Translations under genes and position numbers: made by a program | Part shown: one piece after another, positions 45,224 through 62,446 of the stretch | How the letters are laid out: each line of letters starts with the position of its first letter | How positions within the stretch are numbered: position 1 is the stretch's first letter | IMG/VR virus record: IMGVR_UViG_3300050014_000823 | Coordinates: 235,145 to 299,144 of that record | DNA from: a virus | Length of the DNA stretch: 64,000 nt | Reading direction: 5' to 3' (one strand) | Notes under the pieces: model-generated | What the model was told of the DNA's origin: nothing | Seen by the model: only the letters and a program-made list of their open reading frames with translations | Databases searched by the model: none

Positions 45224-45521
45224 TATCGAAGAACGAGACAATCTTATTCAGTTAATGCAAGAAGCGTTGAAATTCTATGCAGACCCAACCAATTATATTG
45301 GTCCAATGGGAACTATTGCACCGATTTATTCTGATGATTATGGCTCACAAGCACGTTTTGCTTTAGAAAAGGTTAAACAATTAAATGAGCAAAATCAGAA
45401 AATTCAAGACGATTACGACAAACTTATATTGGAAGCAGAAGAACTCGAATCTACAGGTGAAACAAGTCCTTTGGACCTAATTAACATATTTATACAAACC
45501 CGTGATGATAAAAACGTTTAA
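45216..45521 (+). CDS. Small unknown phage protein
   Basis: A 101-residue helical protein; QEALKFYADPTNYIGPMG and DDYGSQARFALEKVKQLNEQ recall hypothetical proteins found in many phages. Its 3' end overlaps the start of the broken mazG gene by 17 nt. Confidence 0.65.
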   Translation: MNSIEERDNLIQLMQEALKFYADPTNYIGPMGTIAPIYSDDYGSQARFALEKVKQLNEQNQKIQDDYDKLILEAEELESTGETSPLDLINIFIQTRDDKNV

Positions 45522-45735
45522 AGAATATCAGCAAGAAGCAAATTTTCTCAAAATATCTTTGGATAGGTTTCTTGAGAAATATCCCGACTTGCCTGCAGAC
45601 GTAATTCTTTTAATGAGAGTTACTTACGATGGTTTAGGACTTGGTGAAGCAGGTGAAGTACAGGGTAAAATCAAAAAGATTATTCGGGATGATGGTGGAA
45701 AAATAACACCTGAACATATTGAAGCAATTAAGGGT
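45505..45735 (+). pseudogene. mazG: mazG-like pyrophosphohydrolase, 5' part (interrupted)
   Basis: 77 codons up to the insertion, then ACG TGA inside the element. The part contains the first MazG motif, GLGLGEAGEVQGKIKKIIRD (ExxE pair), which binds Mg. The second motif (ExxD) is on the 3' part at 47228-47374. Joined at GGT the two make a 124-residue protein ending HGSGDNR, the normal length of a single-domain MazG. MazG hydrolyses NTPs to NMPs and fits the neighbouring dUTPase and thymidylate synthase. Without removal of the insertion the gene is inactive. Confidence 0.8.
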
Positions 45736-45836
45736 ACGTGAACAGTTCGGTTAAATCTACAAAAATCTATTAAAACCTATGAAAATCTATGGACGAAATA
45801 ATTTTAATAAAAACTGATATTTTTAATTAATATATA

Positions 45837-45844
45837 CTATTTAT
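45837..45844 (+). promoter_or_regulatory. Possible late promoter element (variant CTATTTAT)
   Basis: ACTATTTATAAAAGAG, 33 nt upstream of the tnpB ATG at 45878, inside the mobile element. Such a site would let the element use late phage transcription. Confidence 0.4.
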
Positions 45845-45877
45845 AAAAGAGTATTAAAATTACCCAATTAAATTAAA

Positions 45878-47215
45878 ATGTTGAAAGCAATTAAAATTAG
45901 ACTTTATCCGAACAAAACTCAAAGTAGTTATATAAATCGTCTATGTGGTTCATATAGAAAGGTATTTAATATGTGTTTGGAAAAAAAGATAAGTGCTTAT
46001 AACAATGACAAGACAAGTCTGGGATTAAAGGAATTAGGAAATTATTTTCATCAGGACTTAATTAAAAAAGAAGAATTTTTATATCTCAATGAGCACAACA
46101 CCAAAGTATTAAAACAAACAATCATAAATTTACTTGATAGTTATAAAAGATTTTTTGTAAATGGTAATGGTTTCCCCAAATATAAATCAAAACATGATAA
46201 CAATCAGTCAGCGAGATTTCCGCTGGAAGCAATATCAAAATTAAATAGTTATTCTGATAACAAGATAACATTAGGCAGACCATTAAAAAATATTAGTTTT
46301 GAATGTTCTAACAGAGATAAAAATTATTTAACAAATCACAAAGATAAAATCAAGTCAGCAACCATAAGTAGAACAAAATCCGATAAATACTTTTTATCTG
46401 TTCTTATTGATAATATAATTGAAAAACAAATACCAGAACCAACTAATGATATTTTAGGTATTGATATTGGTATAAAAGATTTTATGGTTTGTTCTGATGG
46501 TCAAGTGTTTAATAACTTGAAACTTAAACGTAATAATGAAAAAACATTAATTAAATTACAAAGACAATTAAGTAAAAAACAATTAGTTGGGACTGGTGAA
46601 TATCGGTTAAATAAATATGGTAATAAGGTTGAAATAAATAAACCTTCAAACAATAGATATAAAGCAAGAGTAAGACTTGTAAAATTTCAAGAAAAATTAA
46701 ATAATATAAAAATAAATTACATACATAACATTACAACTCAATTAGTTCGTGAGAACCAAACGATAGTTATTGAGAATTTAAATGTTAAAGGTATGTTAAA
46801 AAACCATTGTTTGGCAAAATCAATTCAAGATTTAAGTATCAACGAGGCATTCAGACAGTTAAAATACAAATCTGAATGGTATGGAAGAGATTTGATTATA
46901 ATAGACAGATGGTTTCCTTCGAGTAAATTATGTAATGTTTGTGGTTATAAGTATAAGAATTTATCATTAAAAGAAAGACATTGGACTTGTCCAGACTGTG
47001 GGACACAACATGATAGAGATTATAATGCGGCAACAAATATTATGAAAGAAGGAAAGAGATTGATAGGGACACGTTATCCCGAATTTACGCTTGTGGACTA
47101 TCCAACTATGGATGACAGACTCAGTAATGAGGTACTAAAAAGTAGTGATAGGTTGAGACAAGAAGAAAAAAGTACAAATAGTGAACGAAGTGAACTTCGT
47201 ACTAAGTTTTTGTAG
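45878..47215 (+). CDS. tnpB: TnpB RNA-guided nuclease (IS605 OrfB family)
   Basis: A 445-residue TnpB. N-terminal KAIKIRLYPNKTQSSYINRL and the central KRFFVNG region are typical. RuvC motifs are intact: LGIDIGIKDFMV (Asp, near 195), IVIENLNVKGML (Glu, near 298) and HDRDYNAATNIM (Asp, near 385). A zinc finger (CNVCGYK and CPDCG) lies at about 350-380. After the core a 50-residue tail (TRYPEFTLVDYPTMDDR to the end) overlaps the expected guide-RNA coding region. Length is normal and no frame damage is seen, so it is probably active. Confidence 0.92.
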   Translation: MLKAIKIRLYPNKTQSSYINRLCGSYRKVFNMCLEKKISAYNNDKTSLGLKELGNYFHQDLIKKEEFLYLNEHNTKVLKQTIINLLDSYKRFFVNGNGFPKYKSKHDNNQSARFPLEAISKLNSYSDNKITLGRPLKNISFECSNRDKNYLTNHKDKIKSATISRTKSDKYFLSVLIDNIIEKQIPEPTNDILGIDIGIKDFMVCSDGQVFNNLKLKRNNEKTLIKLQRQLSKKQLVGTGEYRLNKYGNKVEINKPSNNRYKARVRLVKFQEKLNNIKINYIHNITTQLVRENQTIVIENLNVKGMLKNHCLAKSIQDLSINEAFRQLKYKSEWYGRDLIIIDRWFPSSKLCNVCGYKYKNLSLKERHWTCPDCGTQHDRDYNAATNIMKEGKRLIGTRYPEFTLVDYPTMDDRLSNEVLKSSDRLRQEEKSTNSERSELRTKFL

Positions 47216-47227
47216 ATTTTTTTGAAC

Positions 47228-47374
47228 GGTGAATTATCTGATATATTATGGTATATCTCATCAATATGTGATACACTTGGATTAAAAATGGAAGATGTTG
47301 CCACATATAATATCGAAAAATTAAAGTCCCGTAGAGATAGGGGAGTATTACATGGCAGTGGTGATAATCGTTAA
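47228..47374 (+). pseudogene. mazG: mazG-like pyrophosphohydrolase, 3' part
   Basis: In the frame that continues the 5' part it reads GELSDILWYISSICDTLGLK, then EDVATYNIEKLKSRRDRG and HGSGDNR before the stop. ELSDILWY supplies the second MazG acidic pair, and the KLKSRRDRG-HGSGDNR end is diagnostic. It lacks its own start and cannot be translated alone. Confidence 0.8.
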
Positions 47375-47415
47375 AAAAATATTATTGTGTTTATTGATTA
47401 TTTCAATAACACCAA

Positions 47416-47423
47416 GTATTTAT
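47416..47423 (+). promoter_or_regulatory. Late promoter element GTATTTAT
   Basis: AAGTATTTATTGTAAAA, 15 nt upstream of the ATG at 47439. It argues that the longer reading from 47352 is not the real start. Confidence 0.6.
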
Positions 47424-47438
47424 TGTAAAAATAATACT

Positions 47439-48068
47439 ATGGTTGAAAAGGTATGTTTAAATTGTGGTGGTCAATATAAAGTAATTGACAGTCGAAAAGA
47501 TAAGGCAAAATTTTGTTCAAAAGAATGTGCCAATATACAATTAAATGGTGAAAAAAATACTGTATGTACTGAATGTGGTGAATCGTTTCATTTAAAGGAA
47601 TCGTCAAAGAGAAGATATAAGAGAACACAAGGTTATTTTTGCTCGACAAAATGTGTTGCAGATTTTAGAAAGAAAGCATATATAGGTATCAATAATCCTA
47701 ATTTTAGAAATGCTGAAACAAGTAATGGCTATTTGCTTGAGCAATTACCTAAATTCGGAAGAATTAAATTACATCATAAAGTAGTGTTTGAGTATTTAAA
47801 CATCAATGAAATACCACACAATTATTGTATTCACCATAGAGATTGTCAAATTAATAACAACGACAAAGAAAATTTGGCACTATTAACAGGAAGCGACCAT
47901 AGATGGTTACATAAAAATTTTGGCAATGCAACTTTATGGGCATACGTAAATAACAGAATATCTCTGAAAGAATTGTGTAGTTGGTGTAAAAATCCCGAAA
48001 AGGCTATGAAATTGTTACCATTTAACATTATAACACAAAAAGAATTAATTATATATGAAAACAGTTAA
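47439..48068 (+). CDS. HNH homing endonuclease
   Basis: About 209 residues from the ATG at 47439. The N-terminus has two CxxC zinc motifs (CLNCGGQYK, FCSKEC; CTECGESF, FCSTKC). The core is IKLHHKVVFEYLNINEIP, then YCIHHRDCQINNNDKENLAL with a histidine cluster and SDHRWLHKN, typical of HNH-type phage endonucleases. It stands between the tnpB-split mazG and dut, overlaps dut by 14 nt, and has a late-type element of its own. Confidence 0.82.
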   Translation: MVEKVCLNCGGQYKVIDSRKDKAKFCSKECANIQLNGEKNTVCTECGESFHLKESSKRRYKRTQGYFCSTKCVADFRKKAYIGINNPNFRNAETSNGYLLEQLPKFGRIKLHHKVVFEYLNINEIPHNYCIHHRDCQINNNDKENLALLTGSDHRWLHKNFGNATLWAYVNNRISLKELCSWCKNPEKAMKLLPFNIITQKELIIYENS

Positions 48069-60494: not shown

Positions 60495-62414
60495 TTATAA
60501 TAAAAATTTGTCTATTGCCGTAATTATCTTATCGTCACCTTCTTTAAGATAAATACCATTTTTATTTACGTAGGTTTCTCCAAAGCTAAGTTCGCCATTT
60601 TTGCCAGGGAATAGAAATGCTCCGGGAGTACTTGGTGTTGCAACTAAGTCAAAACCAATTAATTCGAAGTCATTTTGTACAAGGTTCTCACCATGTAATT
60701 CCTTAAGCGTTCCGACACCACGGCTGGAAATACCTAATCTGATTTTATTTTGTAAGTAGAGAATTACCTTATCGCCAACAACTGAAACCACACCATACTT
60801 AATAAAGCCGGGTGATACAATTATTTTTAATTCTCCGAATAAAACATTTTCTTGCTGACCTTTACCCCACCACATTTTTGTAATCATGTGTGAGATATTC
60901 TGAAGTGATATTATGCTTGAATTACCTGTCCAATGTGATTTGCCGTTTACTTTAACTAAAAAGTTGCCATTTTTAACTCTAACGCAAGCAATGTCACCAT
61001 CAAAATCAATCTCATTAACACTAATACATCTTTTATCTAAATAAATGTTTTTTCTTTTTGATATATTTAAATTATATTGTAAATGAGAGTTTTCTTCTTT
61101 AATCAACCTTCTTTCATTAACATCTTCGTTCATATGTTCAATTGTTCCATCGGATAAAACAATCTCTTTTTTTATTATTACACAATCTATTAAATATCTG
61201 TCTTTAGGTTGATATGTAGTAATATTACCGTTTCCACCAATTTTAATCAGCACTTCGTGTAAATCATTAATTAATTGTTTTGATATTGAAAAAACCGATT
61301 CTTTATTCGACCAATTTTTATGCTTTGACTTAACCGATTTACCATCGCCAATTTGAAACCAATCAAAAAATATTTTCAATAAATTTGATGATGCCTGTTT
61401 TAATTCAACAGGAATATATTTATTATATGAATATCCTAATGGATATAAATAATTATATAATCTTGCGTCTGCTATATGATATTGACATTTTCCATTATCA
61501 TGTTCATCAACCCAATATTTAAAAGGTAATTTATTTAATAATTCTACAATAATTTTCTTTTTTTCCGTATTTTTTTGTGTTATAACAACATCATATCCTT
61601 TCAATTTATATTGATTGGACTTTGTACCGCCACAATGCCCTTCAGCCAAATAAATACCTATAAATGCAAACCAATCCTCAGACTTAATATTGATTGGTCG
61701 TGTATATTTTTCAATTAAATCATGTTTTGTATTAAAACTAAGAATATTTGTGTCAACGCCATTTAATGTGAAATATTCATTATATTGACCAACCCATTCA
61801 CCTGTTTTTAATAATTTATATTTACCTGATGAGAAAATATTGTTTTTATTATTAAAAATATCTTCAGCAAAAAAATAATTTCTATCACCTTTCGAGTTTT
61901 CAAGTAAAAATCTGTGATTACCAGTCACAGTTAAATCAATATTTTGACCAAAAAATTTATACATCTTACCCTTATAATCCAAATAGATTTTTTTATCAAT
62001 TTTTTGAATTTCAATTTGATTTGTTTCGGTATTTAATGTTAATATTTCTTCATCTTCTGAAATGTCCTTGAACCATTTCCAACCATTTTTAGTACAAATC
62101 ATTGATTCAGAAGCATTTACGCAGTCTGGGTGGTCGGCTTCGGAAACCGCACTATTAGTATCAACTAACTTTTGATACTCCATAACTTGTGGTAGAAGAA
62201 CCTCTTTAGGATAAATCCTACCGTTCTTATTTTTAACACCCCACTTCTGTAAAATACAGTTTATTAAAACTGGCTCATTTGGCTTAAGCACAAATGCTTC
62301 GTTAACGTATTTGGGATTTAAATCAGAGTCTAAATAACCAGCATCGTGCTCGATTAAAATTCCAAAACCCACATCACCAGCTTCCAGTATCCTGCTTAAT
62401 TGTTTCTTTAGCAT
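60495..62414 (-). CDS. Prohead protease (gp21-like) with an intein
   Basis: About 639 residues from the ATG at 62414, of which 401 are an intein; the spliced product is about 238 residues, near the T4 gp21 length. Extein parts: WGVKNKNGRIYPKEVLLPQ, VSEADHPD (catalytic His at about 95), then SSIISLQNISHMITKMWW, GISSRGVGTLKEL (Ser site) and FDLVATPSTPGAFLFPG. It cleaves scaffold and capsid proteins in the prohead. The late element at 62430 shows that the upstream TTG reading is not the start. Confidence 0.88.
   Translation of the reverse strand: MLKKQLSRILEAGDVGFGILIEHDAGYLDSDLNPKYVNEAFVLKPNEPVLINCILQKWGVKNKNGRIYPKEVLLPQVMEYQKLVDTNSAVSEADHPDCVNASESMICTKNGWKWFKDISEDEEILTLNTETNQIEIQKIDKKIYLDYKGKMYKFFGQNIDLTVTGNHRFLLENSKGDRNYFFAEDIFNNKNNIFSSGKYKLLKTGEWVGQYNEYFTLNGVDTNILSFNTKHDLIEKYTRPINIKSEDWFAFIGIYLAEGHCGGTKSNQYKLKGYDVVITQKNTEKKKIIVELLNKLPFKYWVDEHDNGKCQYHIADARLYNYLYPLGYSYNKYIPVELKQASSNLLKIFFDWFQIGDGKSVKSKHKNWSNKESVFSISKQLINDLHEVLIKIGGNGNITTYQPKDRYLIDCVIIKKEIVLSDGTIEHMNEDVNERRLIKEENSHLQYNLNISKRKNIYLDKRCISVNEIDFDGDIACVRVKNGNFLVKVNGKSHWTGNSSIISLQNISHMITKMWWGKGQQENVLFGELKIIVSPGFIKYGVVSVVGDKVILYLQNKIRLGISSRGVGTLKELHGENLVQNDFELIGFDLVATPSTPGAFLFPGKNGELSFGETYVNKNGIYLKEGDDKIITAIDKFLL
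60921..62123 (-). other. Intein with LAGLIDADG endonuclease domain
   Basis: A 401-residue insertion from Cys (residue 98) to Asn (498). It starts CVNASESMICTKNGWKWF, has a splicing block ending KSHWTGN, and the +1 extein residue is Ser. Two LAGLIDADG-type helices are seen: WFAFIGIYLAEGH near 250-260 and FFDWFQIGDGK near 347-358. The block G ends in G-N rather than H-N. Both halves of the protease remain in frame, so splicing is likely needed for function. Confidence 0.9.
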
Positions 62415-62429
62415 AACAAATTCTTTACT

Positions 62430-62437
62430 ATAAATAG
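62430..62437 (-). promoter_or_regulatory. Late promoter element (variant CTATTTAT)
   Basis: Minus-strand AAACTATTTATAGTAAAG, 15 nt upstream of the prohead protease ATG at 62414. Confidence 0.65.
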
Positions 62438-62446
62438 TTTGCAATA

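What the first reader, a model, noticed from the sequence alone, without database searches (positions are those of the whole stretch)
45505..47374. tnpB element sits exactly between the two catalytic motifs of mazG
Removing 45736-47227 rejoins a 124-residue MazG at GGT with ExxE on one side and ExxD on the other. The tnpB has all RuvC residues and lacks tnpA. Insertion into the most conserved spot is the pattern of homing elements, so TnpB may act as an RNA-guided homing nuclease using the 3' flank as guide target. Ends share a 13-bp inverted repeat that could also bring RNA ends together, as in an IStron.
Basis: partly seen in the sequence, partly recalled or inferred. Interest (0 to 1): 0.72.

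Follow-up and report, generated by a model that had tools for sequence, protein, structure and literature searches.

The report
TnpB insertion sequence splitting phage mazG
A small jumping gene that carries an RNA-guided DNA cutter (TnpB) has landed inside a large virus's mazG gene; it is a family member without its own transposase, an ordinary kind of mobile element rather than a splicing intron or a site-specific homing element.

Summary
mazG is interrupted by a precise 1495-bp insert (45735-47229), not 1492 bp. Four related phages carry the empty site, aligned through the junction without gaps, and no second mazG was found in this 299-kb record. TnpB aligns to ISDra2 TnpB with its D/E/D triad, and a covarying RNA fold supports a guide RNA at the 3' end.

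The element is best read as an IS607-type insertion sequence without tnpA. It inserts after GGG and ends in CGG without target duplication. Its left end has four motifs at 10-bp steps starting at bp 21, as in the IS607-family element IS1535. The '13-bp inverted repeat' is that motif on the right end. Relatives sharing the ends or guide-RNA scaffold encode an IS607 transposase. A second copy (83%) in the same genome splits an hsp20 gene.

IStron and site-specific homing are not supported. Rfam finds no group I intron, relatives sit in both orientations in unrelated genes, and all 27 compared mazG relatives are uninterrupted. The spot between the motifs is one of only two GGGT sites in mazG. Cutting of the empty mazG allele, as for any TnpB, is plausible but untested.

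The parts
45505..45734 (+). 5' part of mazG, with the ExxE motif; ends in the GGG target
   Evidence: Frame 45502-45741; rejoined protein hits Pfam MazG; gapless to intact relatives
45730..45734 (+). AAGGG: insertion target and inferred TAM for the guide
   Evidence: GGG precedes the left end in most copies found; published IS607 TnpB TAMs are AGGAG or GAGGG (PMC11061315). TAM role is inferred
45735..47229 (+). whole element, 1495 bp, IS607-type, tnpA-less
   Evidence: Empty-site alignments; second copy with the same ends
45755..45794 (+). left-end array of four motifs (ATCTA/ATCTA/ACCTA/ATCTA at 10-bp steps, LE bp 21-60), probable TnpA binding sites
   Evidence: Lag-10 identity not reached in 20,000 shuffles; same layout described for IS1535 (PMC6188088)
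45878..47215 (+). tnpB, 445 aa, RuvC D196/E299/D381 and Cys4 zinc ribbon
   Evidence: Pfam OrfB_IS605, Cas12f1-like_TNB, HTH; NCBIfam guided_TnpB over cut-off; PDB ISDra2 TnpB E=2.8e-73
47064..47229 (+). probable omega-RNA scaffold, overlapping the tnpB C-terminus
   Evidence: 7 of 9 consensus pairs with compensatory changes in 10 related 3' ends
   Evidence: Inverted repeat I2; 31-bp right end shared with other elements
47230..47249 (+). inferred guide-encoding flank (TGAATTATCTGATATATTAT), part of mazG
   Evidence: Position only; no RNA data. Nearest empty alleles differ by 1-3 bases
47230..47374 (+). 3' part of mazG, with the ExxD motif

Best explanation
This is an IS607-type insertion sequence without tnpA that keeps tnpB, its omega-RNA and both ends (an IS1341-like, TnpB-only form). 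It inserted without target duplication after a GGG in mazG of a large virus, splitting the gene. Movement would need a serine transposase in trans, for example one of the two IS607-type TnpA genes about 165 kb away in the same record. After insertion the omega-RNA takes its guide from the mazG 3' flank, so TnpB would cut empty mazG alleles next to AAGGG and favour retention or spread of the insertion among viral genome copies. Shown: precise insertion, IS607-like ends and relatives, intact TnpB catalytic residues, RNA covariation. Inferred: trans mobilisation, guide production, cutting, loss of MazG function.
For: Empty sites without gaps and a second copy in hsp20 with the same ends. Left-end motifs at LE 21-60, 10-bp steps, as footprinted for IS1535 (PMC6188088); insertion at GGG and CGG termini as for IS607-type elements (PMC4227781). 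Relatives L005 and L117 carry a transposase over the NCBIfam IS607 cut-off; L011 and L202 carry Resolvase+MerR proteins. Several distinct TnpB elements occur in the record. TnpB domains and triad; covarying 3' RNA.
Against: No tnpA in the element, and the in-genome TnpA element L005 has a diverged end motif, so the helper is unproven. No RNA or activity data. TnpB itself scores below the NCBIfam IS607_TnpB cut-off and, over the IS200_TnpB model, also below cut-off; only the broader guided_TnpB model is passed.
Confidence: 0.88

Rival explanations
1. IStron-like: the insert is removed from the mRNA by self-splicing helped by its complementary ends, so mazG stays functional.
For: Frames are restored exactly in mazG, hsp20, L008 (two elements) and others; group B IStrons share GGG/CGG ends and long AU-rich end pairing (PMC4227781).
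Against: No group I intron in Rfam at E up to 10; only about 140 nt precede tnpB; antisense copies (L016/L112, L142) have IS607-type ends, and L016 the same inverted repeat; exact frame restoration follows from any insertion without target duplication; the end pairing is explained by transposase-binding motifs.
Confidence: 0.04
2. Site-specific homing element: TnpB acts as a homing nuclease dedicated to the mazG site, spreading the element to empty mazG alleles of co-infecting phages.
For: The guide matches its own empty site by construction; the closest empty allele (L021) differs by one base in 20. TnpB works as a drive for IS200/IS605 elements in plasmids (PMC11870625).
Against: 0 of 27 mazG relatives are occupied and none has GGG at the site; the near-identical second copy sits in hsp20, and relatives are in unrelated genes: the pattern of transposition followed by local retention.
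Confidence: 0.07
3. The split is tolerated because the two MazG halves are made as separate polypeptides that assemble.
For: Both halves keep open frames; a TTG codon in frame with the C-half lies 7 nt after the tnpB stop.
Against: The same TTG is out of frame in the hsp20 copy (sequence), so it is not a feature of the element; each half lacks one catalytic motif; no activity data.
Confidence: 0.05

Closest known systems
IS607 family (IS607, IS1535, ISC1926; PMC6188088)
   Same: GG target and GG terminus, no target duplication, left-end motifs phased by 10 bp from LE 21 to 60, motif inverted on the right end; relatives encode the IS607 transposase
   Different: No tnpA in this copy
IS1341-type TnpB-only elements (PMC9956272)
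   Same: Only tnpB between recognisable ends
   Different: Here the ends and relatives point clearly to IS607 rather than IS605
TnpB/omega-RNA nucleases (ISDra2 TnpB, 8BF8; IS607 TnpBs such as ISFba1, PMC11061315)
   Same: RuvC D/E/D triad, zinc ribbon, structured 3' RNA, G-rich motif before the target
   Different: Activity, guide and TAM not tested; longer C-terminus encoded by the RNA region
Group B IStrons (PMC4227781)
   Same: Insertion after GGG, element starts with T and ends CGG, complementary AU-rich ends, ORF B-only forms exist
   Different: No group I intron detected; antisense insertions in the family

Membership tests
IS607-type insertion sequence | insertion at GG, GG terminus, no target-site duplication | tested here: met
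   GGG|T...CGG|T with empty sites
IS607-type insertion sequence | helically phased short motifs in the left end, inverted on the right end | tested here: met
   Four motifs at LE 21-60, 0 of 20,000 shuffles; PMC6188088
IS607-type insertion sequence | encodes a serine-recombinase TnpA | tested here: not met
   Only tnpB lies in the element; present in relatives L005, L117, L011, L202. So it is a tnpA-less derivative, not a complete IS607
TnpB RNA-guided nuclease | RuvC D/E/D triad and zinc ribbon | tested here: met
TnpB RNA-guided nuclease | structured omega-RNA at the 3' end | tested here: met
   7 of 9 pairs with compensatory changes; structure only, expression not shown
TnpB RNA-guided nuclease | guided DNA cleavage next to a TAM | not testable with these tools
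   Needs biochemistry or an interference assay
IStron | group I intron core | tested here: not met
   No Rfam match at E up to 10 in this element or the mini element; none at gathering threshold in relatives. No positive control was run
IStron | self-splicing in vivo | not testable with these tools
   Needs RNA; antisense insertions in relatives argue against it as a family trait
Site-specific homing element | same site occupied in different related phages | tested here: not met
   0 of 27 mazG relatives occupied; family found in unrelated genes

The most novel reading that the evidence does not exclude
The sense-oriented copies in mazG, hsp20 and other genes are removed at the RNA level by an undescribed, non-group-I mechanism using the complementary ends, keeping the split genes functional.
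Probability: 0.03. Interest if true: 0.85.

Novelty: new member of a known kind. Interest (0 to 1): 0.27.

Why it matters
It gives a clean natural case of a TnpB-only IS607-type element in a large virus, with empty sites, a second copy in the same genome, full TnpA-bearing relatives and a tnpB-less relative that keeps the RNA scaffold. That makes the question of how TnpB helps transposase-less elements persist or spread among multicopy phage genomes testable. It also shows that a precise insertion in a conserved motif with paired ends need not mean homing or splicing.

Tried and rejected
Group I/II intron: no Rfam match at E up to 10 in the element or the mini element. Always-sense insertion (intron-like): rejected, mixed orientations. 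Translational bypass using GGT/GGT: rejected, because the hsp20 copy sits in another frame (GGG-GTA). A second intact mazG or hsp20 in the record: none found, though the record may be incomplete. Phage-wide promoter at TATACTATTTATA: only one site in the window, inside the element. Location between catalytic motifs as evidence of targeting: rejected, one of two GGGT sites. The first guide-mismatch table was off by one codon and was corrected. The left end of L010 and the ends of several distant relatives could not be placed. The phage record of Clostridium botulinum that carries known group B IStrons was not fetched as a positive control, since it is a toxin phage.

Full report
OBSERVATION. 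The window lies at 235145-299144 of a 299,144-base virus record. A 79-aa frame with the MazG ExxE motif stops just inside an insert that contains one long frame, tnpB (45878-47215, 445 aa), and the MazG ExxD motif follows the insert. The flanks joined in a script give a 124-aa protein that hits Pfam MazG (E=2.4e-8). Relatives L020-L023 from other viral contigs have intact mazG with partly syntenic flanks. The joined window aligns to them through the junction; in L020, L021 and L023 the mazG alignment has no gaps at all (L020: 373 bp, 85.5%), and in L022 it runs through the junction inside a longer gapped alignment. Codon-level comparison puts the junction at the same place in all. This fixes the insert at 1495 bp, ambiguous by the shared GGT; by the IS607 convention it is 45735-47229. 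No second mazG was found in the record.

A SECOND COPY. The same record has an 83% identical element at about 144284-145734 (L004:3785-5235's frame) inside an hsp20 gene. Removing it rejoins LEDG-VLTVTIPK, and Pfam HSP20 then scores E=7e-22. L101-L103 have the gene uninterrupted. Identity between the copies is patchy (blocks of 97-100% next to 63-85%), which suggests exchange between copies or uneven constraint. The record has three further TnpB matches and two Resolvase genes, both at 115 kb.

WHAT FAMILY. Both copies follow GGG and end in CGG: AAGGG|TACGTGAAC...GAACGG|TGAATT and ACGGGG|TACATGAAC...GAACGG|TATTAA. Most relatives with placed ends follow the same rule (L008, L009, L016, L117, L119, L139 and others); L142 is an exception on the left side (ACGGT). 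Four motifs of the left end start at bp 21, 31, 41 and 51. None of 20,000 shuffles reached the lag-10 identity, and lag 10 is the best or tied best of lags 8-12 in nine of ten related left ends. For the IS607-family element IS1535 the literature describes four 9-bp motifs, helically phased, from about LE 20 to 60, two motifs on the right end, GG termini and no target duplication (PMC6188088). Complete relatives encode the expected serine transposase. L005 (same genome) and L117 pass the NCBIfam IS607 transposase cut-off. L011 (TnpB 65% identical in alignment A1) and L202 (a Bacteroidales MAG) carry Resolvase+MerR proteins next to tnpB. L117 and L202 also share the C-terminal/omega-RNA sequence with the window. 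The mazG element is therefore an IS607-type element without tnpA; as a complete IS607 it fails the tnpA criterion.

TnpB AND ITS RNA. The TnpB profile matches ISDra2 TnpB (8BF8/8EX9, E=2.8e-73). The printed alignment is to 9YYG, where positions 191, 278 and 361 fall on D196, E299 and D381 of the window protein; the ISDra2 triad numbering is from general knowledge. These residues and the four zinc-ribbon cysteines are invariant among the seven aligned relatives. In ten 3' ends, RNAalifold finds two small hairpins in which 7 of 9 pairs have compensatory two-sided changes (GGGA/UCCC, CCCA/UGGG, GGUA/UACC). This is good evidence for a structured RNA near the right boundary. Published IS607 TnpBs use AGGAG or GAGGG as adjacent motif (PMC11061315), close to AAGGG here. 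The guide would be TGAATTATCTGATATATTAT and the target the empty mazG allele; that is inference.

HOMING AND ISTRON TESTS. Of 27 mazG relatives compared at the site, none is occupied and none has GGG there; the nearest three differ from the guide by 1-3 bases. mazG has two GGGT sites, both in sense, and none in antisense, so the sense orientation and a site near the motifs are unsurprising. In the window, 87% of GGGT sites fall in long frames, 164 sense and 114 antisense. Insertions of relatives are sense in L008 (two elements), L117 and L119 (a DNA-methyltransferase-like gene, judged from memory of the motif), probably sense in L009, and antisense in L016/L112, L142 and probably L013. The sample is too small to test a bias, but antisense copies with the same paired ends (L016) argue against splicing as a general property. 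Rfam shows no group I intron. Published group B IStrons share the GGG/CGG ends and AU-rich end pairing (PMC4227781), so the resemblance is real, but the defining intron was not found.

MECHANISM. Transposition by an IS607-type TnpA supplied in trans (or present at the time and lost since) put the element into mazG. TnpB with its RNA then probably cuts unoccupied copies and so favours retention, a drive demonstrated for IS200/IS605 TnpB in plasmids (PMC11870625). In a multicopy phage genome this is homing-like, but it is a generic TnpB property. The in-genome TnpA element (L005) has the same target and general end layout but a diverged motif, so it is only a candidate helper.

NOVELTY. New member of a known kind. 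The freshest by-product is L008:820-1184, a 365-bp tnpB-less relative with both ends and the RNA hairpin, also inserted in frame in sense.

Noticed in passing
L008:820-1184: A 365-bp element without tnpB that keeps both IS607-type ends and the conserved omega-RNA hairpin, inserted in sense and in frame in a small gene. It looks like a guide-RNA-bearing mini element that would need TnpB and TnpA in trans.
   Followed up: partly
L005:1690-1905, L011:3171-3389, L117:3157-3369, L202:1981-2202: A conserved small ORF (about 70 aa...NxKVVxVxKxxxELENGDxxPxxFELDxDxxxEEFQxxLDxSK...) lies just upstream of the IS607 tnpA in phage and Bacteroidales elements; no Pfam family above cut-off.
   Followed up: partly
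L005:1886-3140: Two different IS607-type serine transposase genes in tandem before one tnpB, in the same virus record.
   Followed up: no
G000:C1:1-341 (L183, L198): The contig edge carries the end of another TnpB gene whose last 31 bp match this element's right end at 94%, so different TnpB types share one right end.
   Followed up: partly
window 47352-48068 (+): An HNH-endonuclease-like gene with zinc-finger-like cysteines directly abuts mazG; it is absent from the aligned region of L020. Possibly a separate free-standing homing nuclease; judged by eye from the sequence.
   Followed up: no
window 60495-62444 (-): Looks like an intein in a prohead-protease-like gene (SEADHPD-CVNASESM...GKSHWTGN-SSIISLQ), judged by eye from the translation.
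   Followed up: no
window 45735-47229 vs L004:3785-5235: The two copies in one genome are a mosaic: blocks of 97-100% identity beside blocks of 63-85%, as if exchange or gene conversion had happened between them.
   Followed up: partly
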